From a virus, in IMG/VR virus record IMGVR_UViG_3300027797_001262, positions 1 through 28,240 of that record: a DNA stretch of 28,240 nt. The stretch is one strand, 5' to 3'. The position numbers and the translations under genes are program-made. This document shows, piece by piece, positions 2,140-14,047 of the stretch (position 1 is its first letter; the number at the start of each line of letters is the position of its first letter). The notes under the pieces are model-generated. The model had not been told where the DNA came from. It saw only the letters and a list, made by a program, of their open reading frames with translations, and searched no databases.

Positions 2140-3342
2140 ATGATAAACAAAGAACCCTTCAACTCCTTGCTTAAAGACATGAAAACCACGGGCAAATACC
2201 GTGTGTTCAACGACATTATACGTGAAGCAGGCAAGTTTCCTGCTGCCATGTGGTACGGACCTTACAATATCAAAAACATTGTGAACTGGTGTTCCAATGA
2301 CTATCTGGGCATGGGACAGCACAAAGTGGTTCTAGATGCCATGCACACTGCCTTGGATCACACGGGATCAGGTAGTGGAGGCACTCGCAACATAGGCGGT
2401 ACCAGTCACTATCACGTGGCTCTGGAGCATGAATTGGCCACTCTGCACAACAAGGCCAAGGCTCTGCTGTTCTCATCAGCCTATGTGGCCAACGAATGGA
2501 CCTTGATTGCTCTGGCCAAGATCATACCCAACATACACTTTGTGTCGGACAGTGAAAATCACAACAGTCTTGTTATTGGTATGCGCCATAGTCGTGCAGC
2601 AAAAAGCATTTTCAAACACAATGATCTCAAAGATCTAGAAGACAAATTATCCAGTATACAACTCACGGGCAATGTGCCCTGTGTGGTGTTTGAATCCGTC
2701 TACTCAATGGATGGCGATGTGGGGCATATCCGGGAGATCTGTGACCTAGCTGATCGCTATGGTGCCATCACATATATCGATGAAGTACATGCGGTAGGAC
2801 TCTATGGTCCCCACGGTGGTGGGAAAGTTGAAGAGCTTGGGCTACAATCCCGTATTGACATAGTCAATGGTACATTGGGGAAAGCCTATGGAGTCCAAGG
2901 TGGCTATATTGCTGCCGATGTTGAGATCATCGATGCCATCCGTTCAGTAGCTGCGGGTTTTATTTTTACCACATCAATGAGCCCTGTTTCATGTGCCGGT
3001 GCTCTAGCTGCTGTCAAGTATCTCAAAGATCATAACGAACTACGTGATCTGCATCAAGAACGTGCTCGTAAACTAAAGCATAGATTGATCAAAGCGGGTA
3101 TACCTGTGATGGAATGTTCAACCACGCACATAGTACCGGTGTTGGTAGGTGAAGCCAAGAAGTGCAAGGCCATGAGCGATGCGCTATTAAATGATCACAA
3201 CATCTATGTACAGCCAATCAATCATCCCACAGTTGCAGTAGGTACAGAGCGTTTAAGATTTGCTCCAACACCCTTTCACGATGATGGCATGATTGAAGAT
3301 CTAGTCATGTCTCTCAAAGACGTTTTTAATAGAACTTACTAG
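2140..3342 (+). CDS. hemA: 5-Aminolevulinate synthase (ALAS, Shemin pathway)
   Basis: This PLP enzyme of the alpha-oxoamine synthase family condenses glycine with succinyl-CoA to 5-aminolevulinate, the first step of heme and tetrapyrrole synthesis. At 400 aa it has full family length. ALAS-type motifs appear in order: CSNDYLGM (51-58), [17 protein letters not shown] (76-92), SDSENHNS (136-143), [15 protein letters not shown] (214-228; Asp214 and His217 contact PLP) and [12 protein letters not shown] with the Schiff-base Lys248. The 'GTRNIxGTSHYH' and '[11 protein letters not shown]' forms point to ALAS rather than BioF or Kbl. The start at 2140 aligns with known ALAS N-termini; an in-frame ATG at 2083 would add 19 unrelated residues. 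All catalytic landmarks are present, so it is probably active. A late box sits 8 nt upstream. It is a host-derived auxiliary metabolic gene. Confidence 0.93.
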
Positions 3343-4201
3343 TCTTTAGATACTGGCAGTATTCTTTAATGCCCTGCCAGGGTTCATAGAATAAATCAAC
3401 GTTGACTCCCGCAAGCTCTAGTTTGCCAGTATCAGCTTTGGTATCCAATTGATATTGTGCTTTGAGATCTTCGGGCATGGGGATAGAGCATTTGACACCT
3501 GTACCACATTCATTGATCACAATGTTGGCGATGCTGTCAAAGTCCACACTGGCTCCTGTGCCTAGATCATATATCCCGGGTGTGTAGTTTTTCACAAAGT
3601 GATAGATGGTACTGGCCACATCCTCTACCCAGACAAAGTCTCTACGATAGTTCTTGCTGTTTTCAAAGATGTTGATCTTGCTGTCTGTTTGTATTTGATT
3701 GTACCAATGCAGTATGGTACTGGCCATACGACCCTTGTGATACTCGTTGGGTCCGTAGACGTTGAACAGCCTCAACACTACACCTGTAATCTCTTGTTCG
3801 CTGACCTGTTTGCTGAATGCATATTGATTGAGTGGGCCTGCACCATTGCCGTAGACTGCGGCTGAACTGGTAAAGATAAAAGGGATGGCATGTTCAAGAC
3901 AGAAAGCATTCCACATGCGAGTTGACAGCACATTGCTTTTATAGATAGATGGCCAGCTGCGTTCCAGTGTGCTAGAGTTAGCACCAATGTGGACGACTGC
4001 GTCAATGTCTTTGGGATTGAACGTGGTCTTTTCAAATGCGGAGTGCGGGTGCATACTCTTGAACTGCTTGCCCACAAGGTTGCGATATTGTGTTTCGTTT
4101 GACAGATCATCAAATAACACAACATCAGTGATGCCTTTCTTGTTTAGATAGCCCAACATCACGCTGCCGATGAAACCGCCTGCCCCTGTTAATACAATCA
4201 T
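3326..4201 (-). CDS. hldD: ADP-L-glycero-D-manno-heptose 6-epimerase
   Basis: This 291-aa extended short-chain dehydrogenase is expected to convert ADP-D-glycero- to ADP-L-glycero-D-manno-heptose using NADP(+). It has the Rossmann motif TGAGGFIG (5-12), SSAAVYG, the catalytic Tyr and Lys in [20 protein letters not shown] (the HldD-type 'YGPxExHKGxMAS' signature), [10 protein letters not shown] and GIYDLGTG. Spacing and motifs follow E. coli HldD closely. The ATG at 4201 overlaps the stop of hldA as ATGA, so the two are translationally coupled; a longer frame to 4231 has no support. It is the last gene of the clpP-heptose cluster and converges on hemA with a 17-nt overlap. The product is the activated heptose used in LPS inner core. 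Confidence 0.9.
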
Positions 4202-4959
4202 AGTATTTCTTCCATCGTAGGAGCATAACATCCAACATGCTGAACTGTGATAGCGGCAGCTTGGTTGGCAAAGTCCATGGCTCTTTTTATATCTTTGGTA
4301 TGTAGGTAGTTGTAGACAAGTGCGGCAAGAAAGGTATCTCCTGCGCCTGTAACATCTACAACTTCTACTCTTGGTGCTTTAGAACTATACTCGTGATGGA
4401 CAGCATCCGCACCTTTGGCACCACGTGTAACAATCAATCCACTGCATTCGCTTTTGATCTTGGTGTACTCTAGCTCGTTGATCTTTACCCATGCACCTTG
4501 CATACGTTCTAGATCTGTTTTCTTAGTATCGATAAAGATAGGAATACTTAGTGCTATCAGATCTTCTATAAGTTCGTAGCTAACTGTTCCTTTATTATAA
4601 TCACTGACTACAACAGCATCATACACATCGGGAATATCTGTTTCGAATGTCAACGGATCAGATACGATGTCATTGTCAATACGCACAATCTGTTGTTTGC
4701 TGCGAGCATCAATAAGTCTAGTCTTGGTGCTGGTCTCGCCAAATAGATAATTTACTTCACAGCCCAATGCCTCTAGATTGTTAAACACATTACCTGCCAT
4801 ACCATCGCTTTCTTCTGCATACGTAGGCACAAATACAGGTACAGGTGCTTCTGGGCTTAGCCTATCAATAGTCCCGTACTGGTAAATGTCTTTACAGTTA
4901 TCACCTATTAGCAATATCTTGTATTTTGTTTGTGGTTGAGTAGTTTTTGAATCTGTCAT
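4198..4959 (-). CDS. hldA: D-glycero-beta-D-manno-heptose-7-phosphate kinase (HldE domain I type)
   Basis: This 253-aa PfkB-family sugar kinase matches the kinase half of HldE. It has LLIGDNCKDIYQYG near the N-terminus, RLSPEAPVPVF (the heptose-kinase signature), a Gly-rich GMAGNVFNNLEALG segment, and the catalytic DVTGAGDTF near the C-terminus. It is shorter than a typical HldE kinase domain (about 315 aa), mainly in the central lid region. It would phosphorylate heptose-7-phosphate at C1. Its first 20 codons overlap the end of hldC by 59 nt in another frame. Its stop overlaps hldD as ATGA. In E. coli this domain is fused to the nucleotidyltransferase; here the two are separate and in reversed gene order. 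Confidence 0.87.
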   Translation of the reverse strand: MTDSKTTQPQTKYKILLIGDNCKDIYQYGTIDRLSPEAPVPVFVPTYAEESDGMAGNVFNNLEALGCEVNYLFGETSTKTRLIDARSKQQIVRIDNDIVSDPLTFETDIPDVYDAVVVSDYNKGTVSYELIEDLIALSIPIFIDTKKTDLERMQGAWVKINELEYTKIKSECSGLIVTRGAKGADAVHHEYSSKAPRVEVVDVTGAGDTFLAALVYNYLHTKDIKRAMDFANQAAAITVQHVGCYAPTMEEIL

Positions 4960-5302
4960 AAAATTTTATCTCTTTGCAGTATTCTGCACCTATAATGGGC
5001 TTGTCTCGATAGTCACTGCCCTTGACCATGACCTCAGGTTCAAAGCCTTTGATCAAATCTACAAGTTCCTGATCAGTGTCAAATGTTTCCACACGATCCA
5101 CACACTTCAAGGCAAACAACATACTGCATCGTTCATATTCCGTGTTAACAGGACGATTCAAACCTTTTAGTTCTCGCACTCTGCGATCACTGTCAGTTAA
5201 CACCAACACATAGCTGTTGGGAAAACTTCTTGCATATTGCAGTAATCTCAAATGCCCTAAATGTATGATGTCAAATGTTCCGTTGACAACAACCCGTGTC
5301 AT
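4901..5302 (-). CDS. hldC: D-beta-D-heptose 1-phosphate adenylyltransferase (HldE domain II type)
   Basis: This 133-aa cytidylyltransferase-fold enzyme is expected to join heptose-1-phosphate to AMP from ATP, giving ADP-heptose. It has NGTFDIIHLGHLRLL with the nucleotide-binding HxGH (His-Leu-Gly-His), VLTDSDRRVRELKG, EVMVKGSDY and the C-terminal YSTTNKI. All are in the order found in HldE domain II and stand-alone HldC. Length fits the single domain. The start ATG overlaps the gmhB stop as ATGA. The last 59 nt overlap hldA in another frame, which is long for this genome. Other glycerol-phosphate-type cytidylyltransferases share the fold, but the neighbours make heptose the best substrate. 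Confidence 0.87.
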   Translation of the reverse strand: MTRVVVNGTFDIIHLGHLRLLQYARSFPNSYVLVLTDSDRRVRELKGLNRPVNTEYERCSMLFALKCVDRVETFDTDQELVDLIKGFEPEVMVKGSDYRDKPIIGAEYCKEIKFYDRFKNYSTTNKIQDIANR

Positions 5303-5916
5303 GCAAGCGACTCCACAAACTGAGCTAGGTTGTCAAATATGACAGTGCGCTGTTTGATTTTTCTATAGGTAAACTTTTGCAGTTCTTTTTCAGTTTCTGA
5401 ACCATAGCCAGTTCGAACCAGCACAGGCCTAGCACCAATGTTCATGGCTGCTTTGAGATCTTTCATTTTGTCGCCTACGTAGAAGCCACCCTTGAATTTG
5501 ATATCTTTAATGTCGGCTTCACACTTTTTAAACATGCCCACGTTGGGCTTGGCAAATGGATCTTCCTTTCGACTACTGGCGCTGTAGTAGATGCCGTCAA
5601 TACTAAAGCAGCCTGCTTCGCCCAGCAGTTTCAGCATGTGCTCATGCACAGTGTCCACATCTTGTTGTGTGTAAAGACCTTTTTCGATGCCACCTTGATC
5701 GGTGATCACTGTGATCTTATAGCCTTTACGCCTTAGTTCAGCTATGGCATCAATGCTGCCTGGGATGGGGTCAAAGTCCTCTACCTTGTGGCAGTAGGTG
5801 CCTAGGTCTCTATTGATTACTCCATCTCTATCAAGTCCTACTACACATTTTGTGCGGAACTCTCCGCCTATCCAAGATATCTTAGGTTGGTTGTTCTGTG
5901 GCTGGTTTGGCTGCAA
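5299..5916 (-). CDS. gmhB: D-glycero-D-manno-heptose 1,7-bisphosphate phosphatase
   Basis: This HAD-superfamily phosphatase is expected to remove the C7 phosphate between the kinase and adenylyltransferase steps. Motif I is GLDRDGVIN with nucleophile Asp29 and Asp31, motif II is VITDQGGI, and motif IV is YVGDKMKDLKAA. The Cys/His zinc loop of most GmhB proteins is absent: the equivalent segment (YYSASSRKEDPFAKPNVGM) has no Cys. The start is TTG at 5916, supported by AGGAG 9 nt upstream; this makes a 205-aa protein that overlaps the cupin gene by 35 nt. The first 15 residues are Gln/Asn/Pro-rich. A histidinol-phosphatase-like HAD is the alternative family reading, but the operon favours GmhB. 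Confidence 0.85.
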   Translation of the reverse strand: MQPNQPQNNQPKISWIGGEFRTKCVVGLDRDGVINRDLGTYCHKVEDFDPIPGSIDAIAELRRKGYKITVITDQGGIEKGLYTQQDVDTVHEHMLKLLGEAGCFSIDGIYYSASSRKEDPFAKPNVGMFKKCEADIKDIKFKGGFYVGDKMKDLKAAMNIGARPVLVRTGYGSETEKELQKFTYRKIKQRTVIFDNLAQFVESLA

Positions 5917-6277
5917 CTTGACTGTCTCCTGGAATGATTCTGTAATTGTCTTCTACTGAGTCTGCTGTGCTGACTTCAAATACCATTGAGTTGGGTTTGA
6001 GTGCAATCAACTGATGCGGCATCATTGGTGGATTGCGCCACGTGTCACCTTCTTTGAGGATCTGTTCTTTGTAGGTGGCAGTGGTGGTATCGCACCAAAT
6101 TAACTTGAACTCGCCTGCGTTAACAAACCAAGTTTCATCTTTTTCTTTGTGAAAGTGCATGCTGAACTTGGCACCTACTCGTTCAAATACCATGATCTTG
6201 CCGCAGTACTTGTCATTGGTGGCCCAGATGATTTCGTAGCCCCATCCTTTGTCTTGTTTACCTTGTAGTTGTGTCAT
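5882..6277 (-). CDS. Cupin protein, phosphomannose-isomerase-like
   Basis: This 131-aa single-domain cupin carries motif 1 as HFHKEKDETWFVNAGEF (metal-ligand His, His, Glu) and motif 2 around GDTWRNPPMMPHQLIAL (Pro-His). It resembles the C-terminal cupin of type II mannose-6-phosphate isomerases and small sugar-nucleotide-cluster cupins. The ATG overlaps the clpP stop as TAATG, and the gene runs into gmhB. No gmhA (sedoheptulose-7-phosphate isomerase) is seen in this window. The cupin could supply an isomerase step or act on the nucleotide sugar; that is inference. The C-terminal 15 residues are low-complexity (VAAKPATEQPT) and lie in the overlap with gmhB. Confidence 0.8.
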   Translation of the reverse strand: MTQLQGKQDKGWGYEIIWATNDKYCGKIMVFERVGAKFSMHFHKEKDETWFVNAGEFKLIWCDTTTATYKEQILKEGDTWRNPPMMPHQLIALKPNSMVFEVSTADSVEDNYRIIPGDSQVAAKPATEQPT

Positions 6278-6864
6278 TATCGTTTGTCAATGATTTTGTC
6301 AATGAGTCCATATTCTAGTGCTTCTTCAGCTGACATGAATGTGTCGCGATCCATGTCACGTTCAAAGTCAGCATAGGTCTTGCCTTTGGTATTGTGCTTG
6401 ACGTACAGTTTGGTCAAGACGTCTTTCATCTTGGTGATCTCTTTGTATTGAATTTCAATGTCGCTCTGCATGCCACGAGCACCGCCGCTGGGCTGGTGAA
6501 TCATGTGACGAGCATAGGGCAACATATAACGCTTGCCTGCTGTACCTGCCTGTGCCAGGAATGATCCCATTGAACAGGCCTGGCCCATCACATAGGTTGC
6601 CACATCGCATTTGATAAACTGCATGGTATCGTAGATGCTCATGCCACTGGTGATAACACCACCTGGGCTATTAATGAATAGCGAAATCTCTTTGTCTGGA
6701 TTTTCTGATTCCAAAAATAACAACTGCGCCACAATGGTATTGGCCATCATGTCTTCTACAGGGCCGTTTAACATGATAATGCGTTCTTTGAGCAAGCGGC
6801 TGTAGATGTCATAGGCACGTTCCCCTTTGGAAGTTGACTCAATGACCATTGGTACTAAATTCAT
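6277..6864 (-). CDS. clpP: ATP-dependent Clp protease proteolytic subunit
   Basis: This 195-aa serine peptidase has the length and motifs of bacterial ClpP: FINSPGG (oxyanion region), GQACSMGSF with nucleophile Ser98, HMIHQPSGG with His123, and an acidic [10 protein letters not shown] segment (about 169-178) supplying the catalytic Asp. It should form a tetradecameric barrel fed by a host (or phage) Clp ATPase in the cytosol. It is the first gene of the heptose cluster, with a sigma70-like promoter at 6895-6922 and AAGGAA before the ATG. It could redirect host proteolysis or process phage proteins; the sequence does not say which. No propeptide is obvious. Confidence 0.93.
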
Positions 6865-6894
6865 ATTGATTCCTTGTTGTTGATTATCGTTTAG

Positions 6895-6922
6895 TTTATA
6901 CTATTGTTCGTTACGATGTCAA
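6895..6922 (-). promoter_or_regulatory. Sigma70-like promoter for the clpP-heptose cluster
   Basis: On the minus strand, TTGACA (6922-6917) is followed after 16 bp by TATAAA (6900-6895), about 30 nt before the clpP ATG. It overlaps the end of the upstream gene. No other promoter is obvious inside the cluster, so all six genes are probably cotranscribed. Confidence 0.7.
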
Positions 6923-7717
6923 GCCCATTCGTTGACAATTTTCATAGAGATGTTTTGCCCAAGTAAAATGCGCCGCCTCAGCTAGGTGCCCGAGTGCTAA
7001 TAGATATTCTTTAGGCTGGCCTTTATACATGTTACGGTCTGATATCATTAGCCCTGAATTTGTAAACTCTGAATAGATGGGTTCTAGCGTTTTAACCACT
7101 GACGGATGCAATGGTGGCTCTATATATTTCGTTAGGTGCATTGCACGAGGGTCACATTCTACGAAATACAACTGATTTTTTAATCTAGTTTGAGCTAGGT
7201 GTAATAGTGTGCGTAGAGCTATTGAAAACTGAAACATTATTACTGGATCGGTGCACCATTTTATAAAAAATGGATACCCGTGTTCGAACCCCTGTGGCCA
7301 GCCATGCAAATATCCTAGATGCAGAGTTTGATCTCTTCCATCATGATTGATATAAATTAAGCGATTGGGGCTGGTTATTCCCAATATCACAAGATCAGTA
7401 TCCAATATGTCACCATTGACTAGGTCTTGGTCTATGCTATAGATCATATTATAGATGCTATTCCCAGGACGAGACCTATTAGTCCACGGTATTCCTATCC
7501 TATCTGCAAGGTGCCGCGGCCATGCATGAGACTTAGCAAGCTCGTTGTATTCTGCTTTAGTCAAATCAGGATATTTTTTATACAAAGTTTGCAAAAATGC
7601 ATCTAGGCCCTGAGTTTTTTTAATCTCGTTCGCTCCTGGAACATATTCCTCGTCAAGGAGCTCATCTCCCTGCGTATAACTGCAACCATACGCTACTAGT
7701 CTTTTGAATTTTGTCAT
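6911..7717 (-). CDS. SGNH/GDSL-hydrolase-like protein
   Basis: This is a 268-aa protein from the ATG at 7717 (MTKFKRLVAYGCSYTQGDE). The N-terminal GCSYTQGDE resembles SGNH block I with Ser13 as possible nucleophile. NRSRPGNSIYNMIYS fits block II (Gly, Asn), LVILGITSPNRL follows, and a C-terminal HLAEAAHFTWAKHL could supply the His of block V. Family members hydrolyse esters, often acetyl groups on glycans, so an LPS- or capsule-directed role is possible. The upstream in-frame extension to 7792 crosses a late box and is probably not translated. The TAAATA box lies 10 nt before the ATG. The fold assignment is moderate and the substrate is unknown. Confidence 0.7.
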   Translation of the reverse strand: MTKFKRLVAYGCSYTQGDELLDEEYVPGANEIKKTQGLDAFLQTLYKKYPDLTKAEYNELAKSHAWPRHLADRIGIPWTNRSRPGNSIYNMIYSIDQDLVNGDILDTDLVILGITSPNRLIYINHDGRDQTLHLGYLHGWPQGFEHGYPFFIKWCTDPVIMFQFSIALRTLLHLAQTRLKNQLYFVECDPRAMHLTKYIEPPLHPSVVKTLEPIYSEFTNSGLMISDRNMYKGQPKEYLLALGHLAEAAHFTWAKHLYENCQRMGLTS

Positions 7718-7727
7718 CTTGTACTTA

Positions 7728-7733
7728 TATTTA
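7728..7733 (-). promoter_or_regulatory. Late-promoter box TAAATA before the SGNH-like gene
   Basis: TTTAAATA on the minus strand ends 10 nt before the ATG at 7717. It lies beside, and points away from, the sigma70 promoter at 7741-7769. Confidence 0.5.
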
Positions 7734-7740
7734 AAAACTG

Positions 7741-7769
7741 TTGACTTGTTGTGGTTTTGACTGTATACT
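7741..7769 (+). promoter_or_regulatory. Sigma70-like promoter before the HNH gene
   Basis: TTGACT, 17 bp, then TATACT, with the -10 box 28 nt before the ATG at 7798. A late box follows at 7784, so the HNH gene may be read both early and late. Confidence 0.7.
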
Positions 7770-7783
7770 GATTGTTCTTGGAT

Positions 7784-7789
7784 TAAATA
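7784..7789 (+). promoter_or_regulatory. Late-promoter box TAAATA before the HNH gene
   Basis: ATTAAATA ends 8 nt before the ATG at 7798, the same spacing as at hemA. Confidence 0.5.
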
Positions 7790-7797
7790 CACGTATT

Positions 7798-8313
7798 ATG
7801 ACTACCCTAGTACTTAACGCAGACATGCAGCCATTGAGCCTATTACCCCTCAGTACCATAGACTGGCAAGAAGCCATTCGTTACATGGTTCTGGACAAGG
7901 TCAAGGTCTTGGAATGGCATGAAGATTGGATCGTGCGATCTGCACGTTGGGAAACTCGTGTGCCTGCTGTGATCATGCTGAACTCCTATCAAAAACCCAA
8001 ACACACCATGAGATTGAGCAAACGCAATATATTTCTGCGTGATGCCTATAGTTGCCAATACTGTGGAGTAGAAATGGCAGAAGCGTTGGCCACTTTGGAT
8101 CATGTGCTGCCTGTGAGCAAGGGTGGCAAGACCACTTGGGAAAACTCAACCACTGCCTGCAAGAGCTGCAACTACAAGAAGGCAGCACATGTGGGCAAGA
8201 TGAAACCAAAAGTCACGCCCTACAAGCCCACATTTTGGGACCTTGTGGCCAAGCGTAGGGTAAGGGGATATCATCTACAACATCCTAGTTGGGCTGACTA
8301 TTTGGGCATTTGA
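7798..8313 (+). CDS. HNH endonuclease
   Basis: This is a 171-aa protein. Residues 86-89 (CQYC) and 121-124 (CKSC) form a Cys4 zinc site around the nuclease core TLDHVLPVSKGG (Asp101-His102), then WEN and the closing NYKK. This is the classic HNH arrangement of bacterial and phage nucleases (CxxC ... DHxxPxSxGG ... N ... CxxCN). The N-terminal 75 residues (MTTLVLNADMQPLSLLPL) match the leader common to stand-alone HNH proteins. It may be a free-standing homing-type nuclease or a host-DNA-degrading or packaging-associated enzyme. It has both sigma70-like and late-type promoter elements upstream. Confidence 0.88.
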   Translation: MTTLVLNADMQPLSLLPLSTIDWQEAIRYMVLDKVKVLEWHEDWIVRSARWETRVPAVIMLNSYQKPKHTMRLSKRNIFLRDAYSCQYCGVEMAEALATLDHVLPVSKGGKTTWENSTTACKSCNYKKAAHVGKMKPKVTPYKPTFWDLVAKRRVRGYHLQHPSWADYLGI

Positions 8314-8317
8314 TTGG

Positions 8318-8346
8318 TTGACAGGATCTTAGGATCCTGTTATACT
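8318..8346 (+). promoter_or_regulatory. Sigma70 promoter with an operator-like palindrome in its spacer
   Basis: TTGACA, 17 bp, TATACT. The spacer and end of the -35 box hold a perfect inverted repeat, ACAGGATC - TTAG - GATCCTGT (8321-8340), that ends exactly at the -10 box. This is a typical place for a repressor. The promoter drives the 54-aa gene and the helicase/methyltransferase operon. Confidence 0.75.
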
Positions 8347-8377
8347 ATATGCATACAGACACTAAGAAAGGTCCAAA

Positions 8378-8542
8378 ATGGACAAACTTAAAATTAGAGA
8401 AGACGAAGGTAAATTCTACGTTTACTTCAACGGTCCTTTTGGCTCGTGCGCCTATCAAAGTGATCCTTTTGACACACTAGAGGCCGCAGAGGCTTTCCGG
8501 CAAGAGCAGATAGATTCCGCAGACTTTGGAGATGAAGAATGA
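8378..8542 (+). CDS. Small acidic protein (54 aa), function unknown
   Basis: This is a 54-aa frame starting MDKLKIREDEGKFYVYFNG, rich in acidic and aromatic residues and ending in DSADFGDEE. It begins 31 nt after the -10 box at 8341 with AAAGG upstream, and its stop overlaps the helicase start as ATGA, so the two are coupled. No known family is recognised. As the first gene of a restriction-like operon behind a palindromic promoter it could be a regulator or a nuclease/DNA-mimic accessory. That is speculation from position and charge only. Confidence 0.72.
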   Translation: MDKLKIREDEGKFYVYFNGPFGSCAYQSDPFDTLEAAEAFRQEQIDSADFGDEE

Positions 8543-10875
8543 GTGAGACTATTATTTCTCAGTCCCTTAAAGAACATTACGGATTTACATACCGTGAGCA
8601 TTTTGACGCTATGTTTCGTCGCAATGCACTCTTTGTTAAAGATGGCGACGCAAACGATACTAAAGTACGATGGTCCAATGCAGATATCGCTGGTGCAAAT
8701 GAAGCTGGCAAGAAAGTGCCTCTCCATGTGTTTACGGATCTAGAAGGTATTAAACGAGATCATGACTATCGCAAAGAAGTAGCCAAAGTATTTCCCCAAA
8801 GCCATCCAGAACTTGATGGCGCCGGCTCAGAGTGGCATGCAGTTCCTCTAGCATTAATTCCAAGTGAACACATCGACCACTACAGAACTCATAAAGACTC
8901 AAACTTTAATCTTGCCATTCGTCCAATTGTAGAATGGTTACAAGACCAACACGCTAAAATCTTTGCCAAGTTTGGTGCTAACAATACAAAACGAAAAGTA
9001 TCGTTACGAGATTTACAGAAAAAAATTATCAAGCGTATTATTAAATTATTAAAAAAACACGGAGTTGACAGCACAATTATTGCAGAGCTGGCTCCTAGAT
9101 TTGGCAAAACTATTTTCTTCTTGAGCCTGTTCTTGGAGATCAGCAAAGAGTACGGACATAAAGTCATGCTGGTCCCAGCGTACTGGCTTCCTGCCATTGC
9201 TAGTTTTAAAAAGGAAACTGCAAAGTGGAGAGACTATCAAGATATGGTATTTGTTGATACCATTGAAGATGGCAACTGGCAACATTCAGTGGAAAATGCG
9301 CTCGAAGTAGATAAACTAGTGGTAGTAGGAATAAGTCTTTACCCTGCATATGACGATTTTGTTGTGCGGAACAAATGGATACATGACTACACAGAAACTA
9401 TCCTTGCAGTAGGCGACGAAGCCGACTATGGTAGTCATACTTCTAACCAACAAGAGAAGATGGAGTATTTGTTTGCTAACAAACAAGTAACTTTTATTCC
9501 TAGTTCGGGTACTAACATCGAGCGTATGAGCAAAGGTGCCGGCGACAATGTAGTAGATGTTGTTGCGGTTCCTTACGCCCTTGTTGAGCAAAGTGGTGAC
9601 GTAGGCATTGTTAAACGAGAGATGTTCCAAATGTATGTAAGCAATCGCATACAAGAATTGGTTAAAGACTATTCTGACGAGGACCGTCCTGCTTGGTCTA
9701 AAATGTTGGAAAAAGCAATGGCTAATAGTCAGTTTTTGATTGGCTTCTTTAGAGCAATATACAATTATGATTCCGAGTACGGAATGTCGTTGGATGAAGC
9801 GGCCGGTGAAGAAATCGTTGTTAGTATGATCTTTGCTAACATGACCAAAGAAGCAATGTCCAAACTAAAGAAATTACTAGATTCCCATCTGCCCGACCAT
9901 CACATCAAAGTTATCAATGGCAACGAAATGACTGGTCGCGATGCGGAAGAAGTAGCCAAAGATACGTTACGACAGGTCAAGTATGGATGGATCGATAAAA
10001 AGAAAGTGATCTTTTTAAACAATGCAATGGCGTCTCGATCGTTTAGTGTAGGTGACATCCAAGCAACTTTATTCCTTAAAGACGGCGGCAGTGTTGATAC
10101 TTTTATACAACAGGCTTTACGAGTTGTGACGCCATTGGACCAAGACGAGACTATTTTAGTTGCTAGTAAACCTAAAGGATACATCTTTAGTTTTAGTTTC
10201 GACCAAAACAAAGAACGCAAAGATCAACTTATGTTGTTGTACGAAGCAAAACGAGTAGTTGAATACTTTGATGAACTAGGACTTCCTATTCCAGGTGCAA
10301 CAAAACCAGGAATTGTGGGCGGAGTTCAGTATGTATTAAACAGTATGAATCTGAGTTCAATTGGCTTTTTGGGAGAAGGCAGACTGGTTAAGGAAAATGC
10401 AGATTCTGTTATGGCCGATTTTGAAGACGATGAAAAAGTTTTACGTGTAGCAGGTATTATTACTAACCGGGCAGGCATTATGGCTAGTCCAGAATTAATG
10501 GAATTGTTGCTCAAATGTCCTTCAATGAAACCTGACCAAAAAAAGAAAGTACAAGCAATCCTTGAGAAAGGAAAATCCAAAGGTGGTGCTGTTGGTGGAA
10601 ATTTTTCTCCAGATGACAAGAAGACACTCGAGAAAGAAGTACTAGGTGCCATCAACTCTATCATCTATAGTTCAACTACAGTGCTACAATTTAGCAATTT
10701 TCAAGGACATAATTTTAAGGAGTGTTTGGAAAATATTTCAAGCAACACCGAGGCTGACAACGATTTTAAAAGAGTGTATAATATTACAAGTGCCGAGATG
10801 ATGAAGTTTTTGCCATACTTGCCAGTTGAATTGTTAGACATGAGCGTTCATAACGCACAGAAAGCATCACAGTGA
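8539..10875 (+). CDS. DEAD-box SF2 helicase, restriction-system-like
   Basis: This is a 778-aa protein. Residues 156-172 (LRDLQKKIIKRIIKLLK) form a Q-motif-like helix. APRFGKT (185-191) is an unusual Walker A of the type seen in phage and restriction helicases, DEAD (293-296, in GDEADYG) is motif II, SGT (323-325) is motif III, and a segment near 538-545 (IQQALRVV) fits motif VI, so both RecA-like domains appear present. The first 130 and last 180 residues have no recognised domain; no PD-(D/E)xK nuclease motif is obvious. ATGA and GTGA overlaps couple it to the 54-aa gene and to the methyltransferase. It may be the motor of a phage-borne type III- or ISP-like modification/restriction complex, or an antirestriction or replication helicase. 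Confidence 0.85.
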   Translation: MSETIISQSLKEHYGFTYREHFDAMFRRNALFVKDGDANDTKVRWSNADIAGANEAGKKVPLHVFTDLEGIKRDHDYRKEVAKVFPQSHPELDGAGSEWHAVPLALIPSEHIDHYRTHKDSNFNLAIRPIVEWLQDQHAKIFAKFGANNTKRKVSLRDLQKKIIKRIIKLLKKHGVDSTIIAELAPRFGKTIFFLSLFLEISKEYGHKVMLVPAYWLPAIASFKKETAKWRDYQDMVFVDTIEDGNWQHSVENALEVDKLVVVGISLYPAYDDFVVRNKWIHDYTETILAVGDEADYGSHTSNQQEKMEYLFANKQVTFIPSSGTNIERMSKGAGDNVVDVVAVPYALVEQSGDVGIVKREMFQMYVSNRIQELVKDYSDEDRPAWSKMLEKAMANSQFLIGFFRAIYNYDSEYGMSLDEAAGEEIVVSMIFANMTKEAMSKLKKLLDSHLPDHHIKVINGNEMTGRDAEEVAKDTLRQVKYGWIDKKKVIFLNNAMASRSFSVGDIQATLFLKDGGSVDTFIQQALRVVTPLDQDETILVASKPKGYIFSFSFDQNKERKDQLMLLYEAKRVVEYFDELGLPIPGATKPGIVGGVQYVLNSMNLSSIGFLGEGRLVKENADSVMADFEDDEKVLRVAGIITNRAGIMASPELMELLLKCPSMKPDQKKKVQAILEKGKSKGGAVGGNFSPDDKKTLEKEVLGAINSIIYSSTTVLQFSNFQGHNFKECLENISSNTEADNDFKRVYNITSAEMMKFLPYLPVELLDMSVHNAQKASQ

Positions 10876-12125
10876 AATTTGTTACAAATTTAGGATTAGG
10901 CATTTTAGGAAAACCCGATAACCCTAATATATGGAGAGAAATCCTTTCTACCAGAACAGTGAAACGTGCATGTAAAAAAGCAAAACGAATTCTTGTTGTA
11001 GCAGGAGGACACGGTACTGAGGTAGACGTGTTAGTTGAATTACACGGAGAGGAAATTCTAACTAAGATTTGGTTTAACGAACTGTTAGTTTGTTTTACAA
11101 ATGATATCTTGGCAAGATATCCTCAAATAAATATAGCAAAGGGAGACTTTTTAAGTCTAAGTTTTAATATGAAATTTGATGTAATAATAGGAAATCCGCC
11201 ATATCAGGAAGGCGGCAGAGATGACCAAGCAAACAAGTTGTGGCCTCAGTTTGTAAAAAAAGCATATGACTTAGTTGAGAACAACGGGTATGTAGCAATG
11301 ATTACCCCCAATGGTTGGATGCAACCTACTGCTGACATTGGTAAAGGCACGGGTAAAAATGCTCTCAGCATCTTTAATGATATCTTTAAGAAGAACAATT
11401 TGATTGTAGCAAACATTGACAGTGACAATATTAGAGAAACGCACTTTAAAGGAGTTGGCAGTACCTTTAGCTATTATCTCTTCCAAAAGGCATCTTATTC
11501 AGGCAGCACAGAATTTATTACTTCCACTGGCAATGTACAAATTGACATTAGCAAAATTGATTCTTTGCCTAAAGTAACTTCTAAAGAAAGTTTGTCTATT
11601 GTAAAGAAGATGGTCGGAACTCCATTTTTGTTTTGTGATCAGAATCACGGATTAGGCGGGAAAGAAAATGACGCACAGGGCCCTTCAGTTTTTCTAAAGA
11701 AAACTAAAAATGGAAACGTATCTGAAACAGTTGACTACAAATACAAAACATATCATACTAATAAGAACGGGGGCACCTATTGGTATAGTGAGACATTAAA
11801 CCCGTACACTAATACTCCAAAAGTTATTATTAGTTTGTCAGGAACATATCTACCGGTGTTTAATAATACCACTGGATTTAGTAACATGTGTTTGGCACTG
11901 ATGTGTGCTACAGACGAAGAAGCAACAAGAGCACAATTCATCTTGTCAAGTAAATTATATAAGTTTTGGGTGGAAATGCAAAAGTTTTCCGGATTTAATC
12001 CACGCAAATTAATTTTAACTTTGCCAGCATTATCTCTAGCACAAGACTGGACAGACGACACGATATATAAACATTTTAGCCTTACCCAAGAAGAAATTGA
12101 CTATGTCGAAGCCAATGATAAGTGA
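10872..12125 (+). CDS. N6-adenine DNA methyltransferase (NPPY type)
   Basis: This 417-aa protein has a GTG start (10872) that overlaps the helicase stop. Motif I appears as VVAGGHGTE (variant of the SAM-binding loop), an acidic motif II as WFNEL, motif III as AKGDFL, and catalytic motif IV as IIGNPPYQEGG. Order I-IV fits Eco57I-like and type I/III adenine methylases. The C-terminal 200 residues, with FSGFNPRKL and similar segments, may be the target-recognition part. It is expected to transfer a methyl group from SAM to adenine N6 in DNA. Third codon positions look more A/T-rich than in flanking genes, which suggests a separate origin. Confidence 0.87.
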   Translation: MKFVTNLGLGILGKPDNPNIWREILSTRTVKRACKKAKRILVVAGGHGTEVDVLVELHGEEILTKIWFNELLVCFTNDILARYPQINIAKGDFLSLSFNMKFDVIIGNPPYQEGGRDDQANKLWPQFVKKAYDLVENNGYVAMITPNGWMQPTADIGKGTGKNALSIFNDIFKKNNLIVANIDSDNIRETHFKGVGSTFSYYLFQKASYSGSTEFITSTGNVQIDISKIDSLPKVTSKESLSIVKKMVGTPFLFCDQNHGLGGKENDAQGPSVFLKKTKNGNVSETVDYKYKTYHTNKNGGTYWYSETLNPYTNTPKVIISLSGTYLPVFNNTTGFSNMCLALMCATDEEATRAQFILSSKLYKFWVEMQKFSGFNPRKLILTLPALSLAQDWTDDTIYKHFSLTQEEIDYVEANDK

Positions 12126-12678
12126 AGTTATAGATCACATTCGAAATCGTACCTATATGGGCGGAGTTGAGCGTGACAAACTGCGAGTAAAAGCTACAGG
12201 TGAAGTATTCACTCCTACAGAACTTGTATGCACAATGTTGAATCAGATACCCAATGATCAATTCACAGATCCTACTAAAACCTTTCTAGATAACAGTTGC
12301 GGTGACGGGCAGTTCCTTGGCGAAATTCTAATACGTAAGATGGAGAATGGGTCTACCTTTGAGCAGGCTCTCTCCACTATATATGGTGTGGACTTAATGA
12401 TTGACAACGTGGACCTATGTCGTGAAAGGTTGCTCTGCGGAGAGACACACTTACGACATATTGTAGAAAAAAATATCCAATGTCGAAATGGTCTTAAATT
12501 CGGATATAATTTCGGACCAATGGGACCTGCTCGTAGAAACACCGAAGATAAAGCAAGGGCTAAACAACAAAGATTAAAAATCAAACAAGAAAATTTAGCC
12601 AAACTAGAAGAAGCTAAAAAACAAAAAGAAGCCAGACAGAAAAAATTGTTCGGTGAAATAATTCCGGAATGTGTTTGA
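12103..12678 (+). CDS. Truncated adenine-methyltransferase-like protein (SAM domain, no NPPY)
   Basis: This 191-aa protein begins at the ATG at 12103, overlapping the preceding methyltransferase by 23 nt; a start at 12115 is also possible. It has TGEVFTPTELVCTML (the N-terminal signature of type I/IIG methylases), FLDNSCGDGQFLGEIL as motif I and IYGVDLMIDN as motif II. It then stops short of the catalytic NPPY and continues into a highly charged helical tail (about residues 145-187, KARAKQQRLKIKQ...). So it has a classical SAM site without the catalytic tetrapeptide, while its neighbour has NPPY with a divergent SAM loop. It may partner the neighbour or be a degenerate or regulatory paralogue. 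Confidence 0.78.
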   Translation: MSKPMISEVIDHIRNRTYMGGVERDKLRVKATGEVFTPTELVCTMLNQIPNDQFTDPTKTFLDNSCGDGQFLGEILIRKMENGSTFEQALSTIYGVDLMIDNVDLCRERLLCGETHLRHIVEKNIQCRNGLKFGYNFGPMGPARRNTEDKARAKQQRLKIKQENLAKLEEAKKQKEARQKKLFGEIIPECV

Positions 12679-12703
12679 CAACTCAACCACTTGATGCTAT
12701 AAT
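12675..12703 (+). promoter_or_regulatory. Sigma70 promoter for DNA ligase
   Basis: TTGACA, 17 bp, TATAAT: a full consensus match. The -35 box overlaps the stop of the preceding gene and the ligase ATG lies 27 nt after the -10 box. Confidence 0.82.
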
Positions 12704-12730: not shown

Positions 12731-14047
12731 ATGCGCACACAACCGGAAACGATCATTCAACAGCTTGAAGCTGACAACAGCCGTTTGAGCAAAGAACAAA
12801 TTCTAGATAGGGCGGCTAAGGAAAATATCCCGGAATTTTTTGAAGGCCTACGTATGGCGCTAGATGGTCTTTACACGTTCGGTGTCAAGCAGGTGCCCGT
12901 CAGTGAAAAAGACGGACAAGGACTTAGTTGGTCCAACTTTCTCGAACTTGCAGACAGTTTGTATCGTAGACGTCTTACTGGACATGCAGCCAAGGATGCC
13001 ATTGAATTGGCCATGAATGTTGCTACTAAGGCTCAATGGAACGATTGGTATCGTCGCATACTGATCAAAGACATGCGAGCAGGCTTTAGTGAAAAGACTG
13101 TGAACAAGGTGCTCAAGATACACAAAGACATTGCTCCTGTTCCTGTGTTTGAATGTATGCTTGCACATGATGGCGCCAAGCACGAGAAAAAGATTACAGG
13201 CAAAAAGATCCTGCAAAAGAAACTAGACGGTATTCGCTGTCTTACAGTTGTAGACTTCGAAAGTCGTACAGTTGTTCAGTACACACGTAATGGTAAAGTA
13301 CTTGAGAACTTTTCACACATTACAGATTATCTTGCTACTCAACTAGATAACTTTGGCCGTAGCTATGTTATTGACGGTGAGATTATGAGCAAGAGTTTTC
13401 AAGCACTCATGACACAGGTACATCGCAAAGACAACGTTGAAGCATCCGATGCGGTGTTGAATGTCTTTGATATTCTGCCACTCTCAGAGTTTAAGCAAGG
13501 CATTAGCTCAATGGGCCAACGTCGACGCTTGAACTTCCTTAAAGAAAACTTTAGTAAAATCTTTGGCGATAGCAATTGCATTGAGATTGTGCCTTGGATT
13601 GAAGTTAATCTCGACGAGTTCATCGGCGACATTGAGTATCGTGACTACAACAAACAAATGGTTGCTGAAGGTTACGAAGGTATTATGATTAAGGATCCAG
13701 AGGCCAAATATGAATGTAAAAGATCTGTTTCGTGGCTCAAAGAAAAACCATTTCTCGAGGTTAGCCTTTCGATCACCGCGGTGGAAGAAGGTACTGGCCG
13801 AAATGTTGGTCGTCTTGGCGCTTTGGTCTGCGAGGGTATTGATGACGGTAAGTCGATCGCAGTCAATGTTGGCAGTGGGTTTAGTGATGCTGATCGTGAT
13901 GCTTATTGGGAGGAACGTGATACAGTGGTGGGGCAGGTGGTAGAGGTACGTGCCGATGCGGTCACACAGAATCAAGACGGTACCTACAGTCTGCGGTTTC
14001 CACGCTTCCTACGCTTCCGTGGCTTCATAGCAGGGGAGAAGATCTAA
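12731..14047 (+). CDS. ATP-dependent DNA ligase (T4 gp30 type)
   Basis: This is a 438-aa nucleotidyltransferase ligase. Motif I is KKLDGIR with the AMP-accepting Lys164, motif III is VIDGEI, motif IV is EGYEGIMIKD, and motif V is SWLKEKP. A helical N-terminal domain (1-135) and a C-terminal OB fold (about 350-438) complete the T4-type layout. It seals nicks in phage DNA during replication and repair. It starts an operon of five genes (to 15546) joined by ATGA/TAATG overlaps. Confidence 0.94.
   Translation: MRTQPETIIQQLEADNSRLSKEQILDRAAKENIPEFFEGLRMALDGLYTFGVKQVPVSEKDGQGLSWSNFLELADSLYRRRLTGHAAKDAIELAMNVATKAQWNDWYRRILIKDMRAGFSEKTVNKVLKIHKDIAPVPVFECMLAHDGAKHEKKITGKKILQKKLDGIRCLTVVDFESRTVVQYTRNGKVLENFSHITDYLATQLDNFGRSYVIDGEIMSKSFQALMTQVHRKDNVEASDAVLNVFDILPLSEFKQGISSMGQRRRLNFLKENFSKIFGDSNCIEIVPWIEVNLDEFIGDIEYRDYNKQMVAEGYEGIMIKDPEAKYECKRSVSWLKEKPFLEVSLSITAVEEGTGRNVGRLGALVCEGIDDGKSIAVNVGSGFSDADRDAYWEERDTVVGQVVEVRADAVTQNQDGTYSLRFPRFLRFRGFIAGEKI

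What the first reader, a model, noticed from the sequence alone, without database searches (positions are those of the whole stretch)
8318..12678. Helicase plus split-looking methyltransferase operon: candidate undescribed modification or anti-defence system
Four coupled genes (54-aa acidic protein, DEAD-box helicase with the unusual Walker A APRFGKT, NPPY methyltransferase with an atypical SAM loop, and a half-length methylase with a perfect SAM loop but no NPPY) share one promoter. The two methylase-like proteins have complementary strengths, as if SAM binding and catalysis were divided or one regulates the other. No nuclease motif was seen, so the unit may modify or protect phage DNA, or restrict competing phages using an unrecognised nuclease in the helicase ends.
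Basis: partly seen in the sequence, partly recalled or inferred. Interest (0 to 1): 0.8.

Follow-up and report, generated by a model that had tools for sequence, protein, structure and literature searches.

The report
Phage restriction-modification operon with split methylase
A virus of bacteria carries what looks like its own DNA-marking and DNA-cutting kit, in which the DNA-marking enzyme is made as two half-proteins that probably have to come together to work.

Summary
At 8318-12678 there is one promoter and four overlapping genes: a 54-aa protein, an SF2 helicase-like ATPase (APRFGKT), an Eco57I-type NPPY methylase, and a half-length methylase with motif X and a perfect SAM loop but no catalytic motif.

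Relatives in about 18 other IMG/VR contigs and in named phages show a conserved module. Helicase and NPPY chain are often one 1140-1160-aa polypeptide, and the half-methylase follows. Several relatives have an NPPY chain that starts at motif IV and lacks a SAM half altogether. In Aeromonas phages both halves form one permuted chain, whose predicted fold matches complete beta-class MTases across both halves (Z 10). So divided SAM binding and catalysis is well supported for the family and likely, not proven, for this pair.

'No nuclease' is wrong for the family. The helicase N-terminus is a divergent T5orf172/GIY-YIG domain (profile-profile E 1.7e-11), other branches carry an Mrr-like or LEM-3 GIY-YIG nuclease, and target-recognition domains are swapped. 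The ATPase model's best Foldseek hit is Type ISP enzyme LlaBIII.

Best reading: a phage-borne ATP-dependent restriction-modification system, Type ISP-like in plan, with a GIY-YIG nuclease and a two-piece adenine methylase. Whether the window's nuclease is active is open.

The parts
8318..8346 (+). sigma-70-type promoter-like site TTGACA-17-TATACT ahead of the operon
   Evidence: 11/12 match; consensus match only
8378..8542 (+). 54-aa acidic protein; conserved small partner upstream of the helicase in relatives
   Evidence: 80-81% identical copies in L017, L018, L025; 43-47% in L022, L023, L027, L028, L026; no family hit in Pfam, PHROGs or NCBIfam
8539..10875 (+). SF2 helicase-like ATPase, 778 aa; motor of the system
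   Evidence: (invariant Q, R-G-K-T, E-D, S/T, Q..R..T motifs); Foldseek best hits LlaBIII Type ISP and SauUSI; VIA-align RadD Z 20.9, LlaBIII Z 19.1
8572..8850 (+). N-terminal T5orf172/GIY-YIG-like domain (residues about 12-104); keeps Y14, G36, R44, D74, E98, lacks the family His (R78)
   Evidence: hhalign with T5orf172-positive relatives Prob 97.3, E 1.7e-11; T5orf172 hits in relatives L004 2.9e-10, L021 0.0026, L035 0.0076; beta-rich predicted fold
9091..9111 (+). Walker A, APRFGKT
10872..12125 (+). catalytic methylase chain: degenerate N-lobe, NPPY lobe, target-recognition domain; predicted N6-adenine MTase
   Evidence: Eco57I 8.6e-15; phrog_3689 1.5e-23; MTase_II 5.6e-20
10872..11168 (+). 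N-lobe with atypical SAM loop AGGHGTE; same region nearly canonical, ruined or absent in relatives
11193..11204 (+). NPPY catalytic motif IV
12097..12678 (+). half-length methylase: motif X (EVFTP), motif I (DNSCGDGQF), motif II, no motif IV; likely SAM-binding subunit (ATG alternative at 12103)
   Evidence: (57-82% identity in most related IMG/VR loci)
12289..12315 (+). motif I SAM loop DNSCGDGQF

Best explanation
The operon is a phage-borne, ATP-dependent restriction-modification system. Modification: P0003 (NPPY lobe plus target-recognition domain) and P0004 (motifs X, I, II with bound SAM) assemble into one adenine-N6 methyltransferase that marks the phage's own sites. This is the beta-class motif order cut into two chains. 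Restriction: the SF2 motor, coupled to the same recognition subunit (fused to it in close relatives), engages unmethylated sites, translocates with ATP, and its N-terminal GIY-YIG domain cuts. Targets would be DNA of competing phages, plasmids or the host. Shown by comparison: the conserved module, fusions, family membership, TRD swapping, interchangeable nucleases, NPPY chains without any SAM half, and a permuted one-chain form with a predicted single MTase fold. Inferred: complex formation by the window's own proteins, the methylated base, translocation, cleavage, targets, and the role of the 54-aa protein (perhaps a regulator).
For: (1) In L017, L018, L022, L023, L027 and L039 helicase and NPPY chain are one 1140-1160-aa protein followed by the half-methylase; L024 is a further fusion with another SF2 ATPase. 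(2) Half-methylase motif I is canonical in 43 of 44 sequences read (41 by strict pattern, plus S-CAM7 and L016 by eye; only LR756508 is degenerate), while the partner's loop runs from near-canonical to absent. (3) Half-methylases 75-82% identical to P0004 serve partners with no SAM loop at all (L024 VTILVPNALNGTIP, L026 NILVMFNIEF). (4) The permuted one-chain relative (L046, identical to Aeh1 ORF084c) is predicted as one fold matching beta-class MTases over residues 1-373 (M.BceJIV Z 10.1, MboIIA 9.6, EcoP15I Mod 8.9), while most gamma-class M.TaqI and CamA rows match one lobe only. (5) Among the fused relatives, helicase 79-96% and N-lobe 76-91% identical, TRD 14-21% between types. (6) GIY-YIG at the helicase N-terminus, LEM-3 GIY-YIG fused to the NPPY chain in phi-ST2 (6e-16) and PSD9 (3.8e-9), Mrr_cat_2 next to it in L026 (1.5e-6). 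(7) Motor resembles LlaBIII, SauUSI and HsdR. (8) A PADLOC 'REase_MTase_IIG' profile (1359 aa) covers the gut relative's helicase and NPPY chains end to end.
Against: P0003 keeps its own N-lobe with a GxG loop, so it may bind SAM alone; the complex of the window's own pair could not be modelled. The permuted-chain model has modest confidence (pLDDT 72, pTM 0.68) and plain Foldseek gives no hit below E 0.001. The window's GIY-YIG copy has lost a near-invariant His (R78) and Trp (F65), so it could be inactive; it gives no direct Pfam hit. N-termini of the L003-type helicases were not recognised as GIY-YIG. No methylation or cleavage data exist.
Confidence: 0.6

Rival explanations
1. Modification only: the methylase pair protects phage DNA against host enzymes, and the helicase with a decayed GIY-YIG domain is a remnant or a loading motor without cleavage.
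For: The window's GIY-YIG lost His78 and Trp65; several phages keep the methylase pair with no recognisable nuclease next door (Aeh1, 65.2, S-CAM7, P-SSM5).
Against: The helicase ORF is intact with all motor motifs; G36, D40, D74 and E98 are invariant in the aligned N-termini.
Confidence: 0.22
2. P0003 is a self-sufficient methylase; P0004 is a SAM-binding regulator or DNA-binding partner (one active, one inactive MTase subunit, as in METTL3-METTL14).
For: P0003 keeps an N-lobe with AGGHGTE, and L025, L031 and L033 partners have canonical-looking loops (DPAIGGGQF, DPAMGGGQF, DPDIGGGQF) beside a half-methylase.
Against: Relatives lack the N-lobe altogether, or have a ruined loop, beside an intact half-methylase; the permuted single chain exists and is predicted to fold as one MTase; L035 and L038, close to the window, have lost the second Gly (GHA).
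Confidence: 0.25
3. A BREX- or modification-dependent type of block: the motor and methylase stop foreign DNA replication without cutting it.
For: Weak PglX/BrxX similarity of the NPPY chain.
Against: The PglX similarity is confined to the shared NPPY region; no other BREX component was found by the window gene scans that were run, which did not cover every ORF; nuclease modules in relatives.
Confidence: 0.08
4. Unrelated cargo genes brought together by chance, the half-methylase being a decayed fragment.
For: Large phages often carry orphan MTases (general knowledge; several unrelated MTase genes lie side by side in LR756508).
Against: P0004 is the best conserved member (57-82% in most IMG/VR relatives) and has the NPPY chain directly upstream in all 23 assessable loci, about 18 distinct.
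Confidence: 0.03

Closest known systems
Type ISP restriction-modification enzymes (LlaGI, LlaBIII)
   Same: Nuclease, SF2 motor, MTase and TRD in this order; in close relatives of the window all on one chain; LlaBIII is the best Foldseek match of the motor
   Different: GIY-YIG-like instead of Mrr nuclease at the N-terminus; 1140-1160 aa against about 1500-residue chains; has a separate half-methylase; in the window motor and MTase are separate genes (PMC4666363 for the ISP plan)
PADLOC PDLC03626 'REase_MTase_IIG' (1359-aa profile)
   Same: Matches gut relative L009 helicase (profile 151-851) and NPPY chain (863-1356)
   Different: Single chain; the half-methylase does not match it; the window proteins themselves do not hit it
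Two-polypeptide C5 MTases M.AquI and M.EcoHK31I
   Same: One methylase made as two proteins (PMC3404938)
   Different: Cytosine-5 enzymes cut between motifs VIII and IX or at motif IX; here the cut separates SAM half (X, I, II) from catalytic half (IV) of an adenine MTase
Circularly permuted M.EcoKI-like DAMs of jumbo phages
   Same: Iyer et al. [quoted passage not shown] the one-chain Aeh1/65 form seen here is plausibly that
   Different: No split form, motor or nuclease module is described in the passages read; the accession they cite beside it (APU01582.1) is another, unpermuted protein
Type III R-M (EcoP15I)
   Same: Separate motor-nuclease and MTase subunits; beta-class MTase order; Mod matches the permuted model (Z 8.9)
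   Different: Res carries a PD-(D/E)XK nuclease (established knowledge); Mod is one chain

Membership tests
ATP-dependent R-M system (general) | SF2 helicase-like motor linked to an MTase | tested here: met
   fused in six related loci that match P0002
ATP-dependent R-M system (general) | site-specific MTase with exchangeable target recognition | tested here: met
   Eco57I domain; TRD swap in relatives
ATP-dependent R-M system (general) | nuclease domain or subunit | tested here: inconclusive
   GIY-YIG homology by profile comparison, but the window copy lacks one conserved His and activity is untested
ATP-dependent R-M system (general) | cleavage of unmodified DNA with ATP | not testable with these tools
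   needs biochemistry
Type ISP | single polypeptide nuclease-motor-coupler-MTase-TRD | tested here: not met
   window has separate genes; fused only in relatives
Type ISP | Mrr-family nuclease at the N-terminus | tested here: not met
   GIY-YIG-like domain instead; no Mrr hit
GIY-YIG / T5orf172 nuclease | sequence or profile match to the family | tested here: met
   hhalign Prob 97.3, E 1.7e-11 with T5orf172-positive relatives; no direct Pfam hit for the window sequence
GIY-YIG / T5orf172 nuclease | conserved active-site residues | tested here: inconclusive
   Y14, G36, R44, D74, E98 present; family His replaced by R78
Split beta-order N6-adenine MTase | motif IV and TRD in one chain, motifs X-I-II in the other | tested here: met
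Split beta-order N6-adenine MTase | catalytic chain lacks its own SAM half | tested here: inconclusive
   true for P-SSM5, S-CAM7, LR756508, Aeh1 and 65; the window chain keeps an atypical N-lobe
Split beta-order N6-adenine MTase | the two chains form one enzyme | not testable with these tools
   supported by the natural fusion model; the window pair was not modelled
BREX (PglX) | full-length PglX and companion genes | tested here: not met
   only short weak matches to PglX, far under its cut-off (13-19 against 500-900 bits); companion genes not seen among the window ORFs scanned

The most novel reading that the evidence does not exclude
A distinct class of phage-borne ATP-dependent restriction-modification systems in which the adenine methylase is obligately two chains: one nearly invariant SAM-binding half shared by all members, and a fast-changing catalytic-plus-recognition half that can be attached to different motors and nucleases (GIY-YIG, LEM-3 GIY-YIG, Mrr-like). 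The cofactor subunit would act as a universal adaptor, and the motor itself is repeatedly split between its two RecA lobes.
Probability: 0.45. Interest if true: 0.75.

Novelty: new variant of a known kind. Interest (0 to 1): 0.6.

Why it matters
If right, it shows that large phages carry complete, specificity-swapping restriction-modification machines rather than only protective methylases, probably used against competing phages or host DNA. It would also add an adenine-N6 methylase divided naturally at the boundary between SAM pocket and catalytic motif; the natural two-chain examples found in the papers read are C5 enzymes. A small, highly conserved cofactor half serving many catalytic halves would be a useful system for the study of methylase evolution and for split-enzyme tools. 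The half-methylases, mostly annotated as hypothetical protein in named phages, get a testable function.

Tried and rejected
Direct nuclease detection in the window's helicase by Pfam, PHROGs, NCBIfam and PADLOC gave nothing; phmmer against solved structures gave nothing for P0002 and P0003, and only BseCI E 0.005 for P0004. Relatives by P0002 alone in IMG/VR: none; plasmids: none; GTDB genomes with the helicase alignment: one phage-like Campylobacterales MAG contig, L059. Alignments A3 and A4 mis-registered the two lobes and were not used for folding. L003-type helicase N-termini as GIY-YIG: not supported. Relatives of the record could not be drawn. Literature searches for split adenine methylases gave no description of this arrangement in the open papers held, nor did searches for phage-encoded R-M or T5orf172-helicase-methylase combinations; subscription papers are not held. 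BREX and chance-cluster readings were considered and set aside as told under rivals.

Full report
Setting. The window is a whole 28,240-base virus record. Around the operon lie an HNH endonuclease gene upstream (7741-8313), an ATP-dependent DNA ligase downstream with its own promoter-like site (12731-14047), a ClpP-like head maturation protease, heptose/sugar-nucleotide genes and a cysteine dioxygenase-like gene, and three tRNA genes. Nucleotide similarity to named phages is limited to stretches under 100 bases in the rows shown (tRNA matches), so this is a little-sampled phage.

Observation. The four ORFs, their overlaps, the promoter-like site and the motifs are as described.

Conservation of the unit. 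A scan with P0004 found 25 IMG/VR loci at 57-82% identity. In every one of the 23 loci with readable upstream sequence (about 18 distinct after removing near-copies), an Eco57I-type NPPY chain lies directly upstream, and an SF2 ATPase before it where the contig reaches far enough. In L017, L018, L022, L023, L027 and L039 the ATPase and NPPY chain are one protein of 1140-1160 aa; in L024 a different SF2 ATPase is fused in the same way. In the L025, L031, L003/L020, L034/L035, L038 and L029/L030/L032 groups, and in L059, the ATPase itself is two ORFs. P0001 homologues end at the ATPase start in L017, L018, L022, L023 and L027, lie just upstream of it in L028, and are in frame with it in L025.

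The nuclease. P0002 has no recognised nuclease in any library. Relatives do: L004 hits T5orf172 at 2.9e-10 (41 bits against a cut-off of 20) and MUG113 at 5.3e-8; L021 and L035 hit T5orf172 weakly. Profile-profile comparison of the window's group (A6) with the T5orf172-positive group (A7) gives probability 97.3 and E 1.7e-11 over 93 columns. G36, D40, D74 and E98 are invariant in A6; the window lacks the family His (R78), so activity is uncertain. Other members use another nuclease: LEM-3-like GIY-YIG fused to the NPPY chain in Vibrio phage phi-ST2 and Shigella phage PSD9, and an Mrr-like protein between helicase and NPPY chain in L026. Proteins of similar size and likely kind in ACG-2014f (L014 gp052) and Bellamy (gp87) were not recognised by Pfam above threshold.

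The motor. The model of P0002 (pLDDT 75, pTM 0.68) matches LlaBIII (Type ISP, E 8e-11), SauUSI, HsdR of EcoR124I and RadD; by VIA-align RadD Z 20.9 (329 residues, 3.5 A) and LlaBIII Z 19.1 (400 residues, 5.8 A).

The divided methylase. P0004-like proteins carry motif X and, in 43 of 44 read, a canonical motif I (41 by strict pattern; S-CAM7 and L016 by eye; LR756508 is degenerate). The partner's N-lobe varies: AGGHGTE in the window and its close relatives, GHA in L035 and L038, near-canonical in L025, L031 and L033, ruined in L024, L026, L014, L044, L056, L057 and L059, and absent in P-SSM5, S-CAM7 (9 residues), LR756508's 277-aa chain and ACG-2014f US24, where the chain begins at MKFDxxxGNPPY or the like. 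L024 is telling: its catalytic lobe and TRD are nearly those of L003, its own N-lobe has no Gly loop, and its half-methylase is 82% identical to P0004. In Aeromonas phages of the Aeh1 and 65 types the order is NPPY-TRD-X-I-II in one chain. The model of that chain (pLDDT 72, pTM 0.68) aligns to beta-class MTases over both lobes (M.BceJIV Z 10.1, 165 residues, 3.6 A; MboIIA Z 9.6; EcoP15I Mod Z 8.9), whereas most gamma-class rows align to one lobe only. So in that relative the half-methylase completes the fold of the NPPY lobe. For the window pair this is an inference.

Specificity swapping. Between L018/L027, L022/L023 and L039 the sequence stays 76-96% identical through helicase and N-lobe and drops to 14-21% in the TRD, recovering in the C-terminal tail. 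This is a signature of changing DNA recognition.

Comparison with known systems. Architecture and motor point to Type ISP, but two defining features (single chain, Mrr nuclease) are not met in the window, so it works like a Type ISP enzyme and is not filed as one. A PADLOC profile labelled Type IIG covers the bacterial-type relative's helicase and NPPY chain. Naturally two-chain methylases known from the papers read are C5 enzymes with another cut. Iyer et al. 2021 mention a permuted M.EcoKI-like methylase in jumbo phages, plausibly the Aeh1/65 form; the split form with motor and nuclease was not found described in the open literature held.

Verdict. A real, conserved, phage-borne R-M-type operon; the divided methylase idea is right for the family and probable here; the 'undescribed modification or anti-defence' label is not needed.

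Noticed in passing
L034/L035 2576-4776, L038 2555-4713, L029/L030/L032 2614-4842, L003 474-2743, L031 2530-4741, L025 2296-4735, L059 1002-3364: The SF2 ATPase is encoded as two ORFs, cut at two different places (just before motif III, or after it) in several separate lineages, with overlaps of 1-14 nt or gaps of 35-39 nt: a recurrently split motor.
   Followed up: partly
L002 11260-13113 (LR756508): A beta-type DNA MTase ORF appears interrupted by an intein-like insert (CLSEDTEILT...ITGNSG), beside several paralogous MTase genes.
   Followed up: no
L015 4001-5642 (ACG-2014f US24): Two tandem NPPY chains that both start at motif IV, next to a beta-type adenine methylase gene; no half-methylase in this stretch, though the same phage carries one elsewhere (KJ019090 36154-36498).
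   Followed up: partly
8378-8542: The 54-aa protein ends in a conserved QxQxxxADxxDEE-like tail and has no family hit; an L026 homologue lies after the half-methylase instead of before the helicase.
   Followed up: partly
12675-12703: Perfect sigma-70 consensus TTGACA-17-TATAAT ahead of the DNA ligase gene; suggests use of host RNA polymerase.
   Followed up: partly
L053 (Prevotella phage Lak-C1): The NPPY ORF upstream of the half-methylase is open only if TAG is read as Gln (table 15).
   Followed up: partly
window 3326-7792: Minus-strand cluster with nucleotide-sugar epimerase, heptose-like genes, cysteine dioxygenase-like and head maturation protease genes: possible surface-modification cargo.
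   Followed up: no
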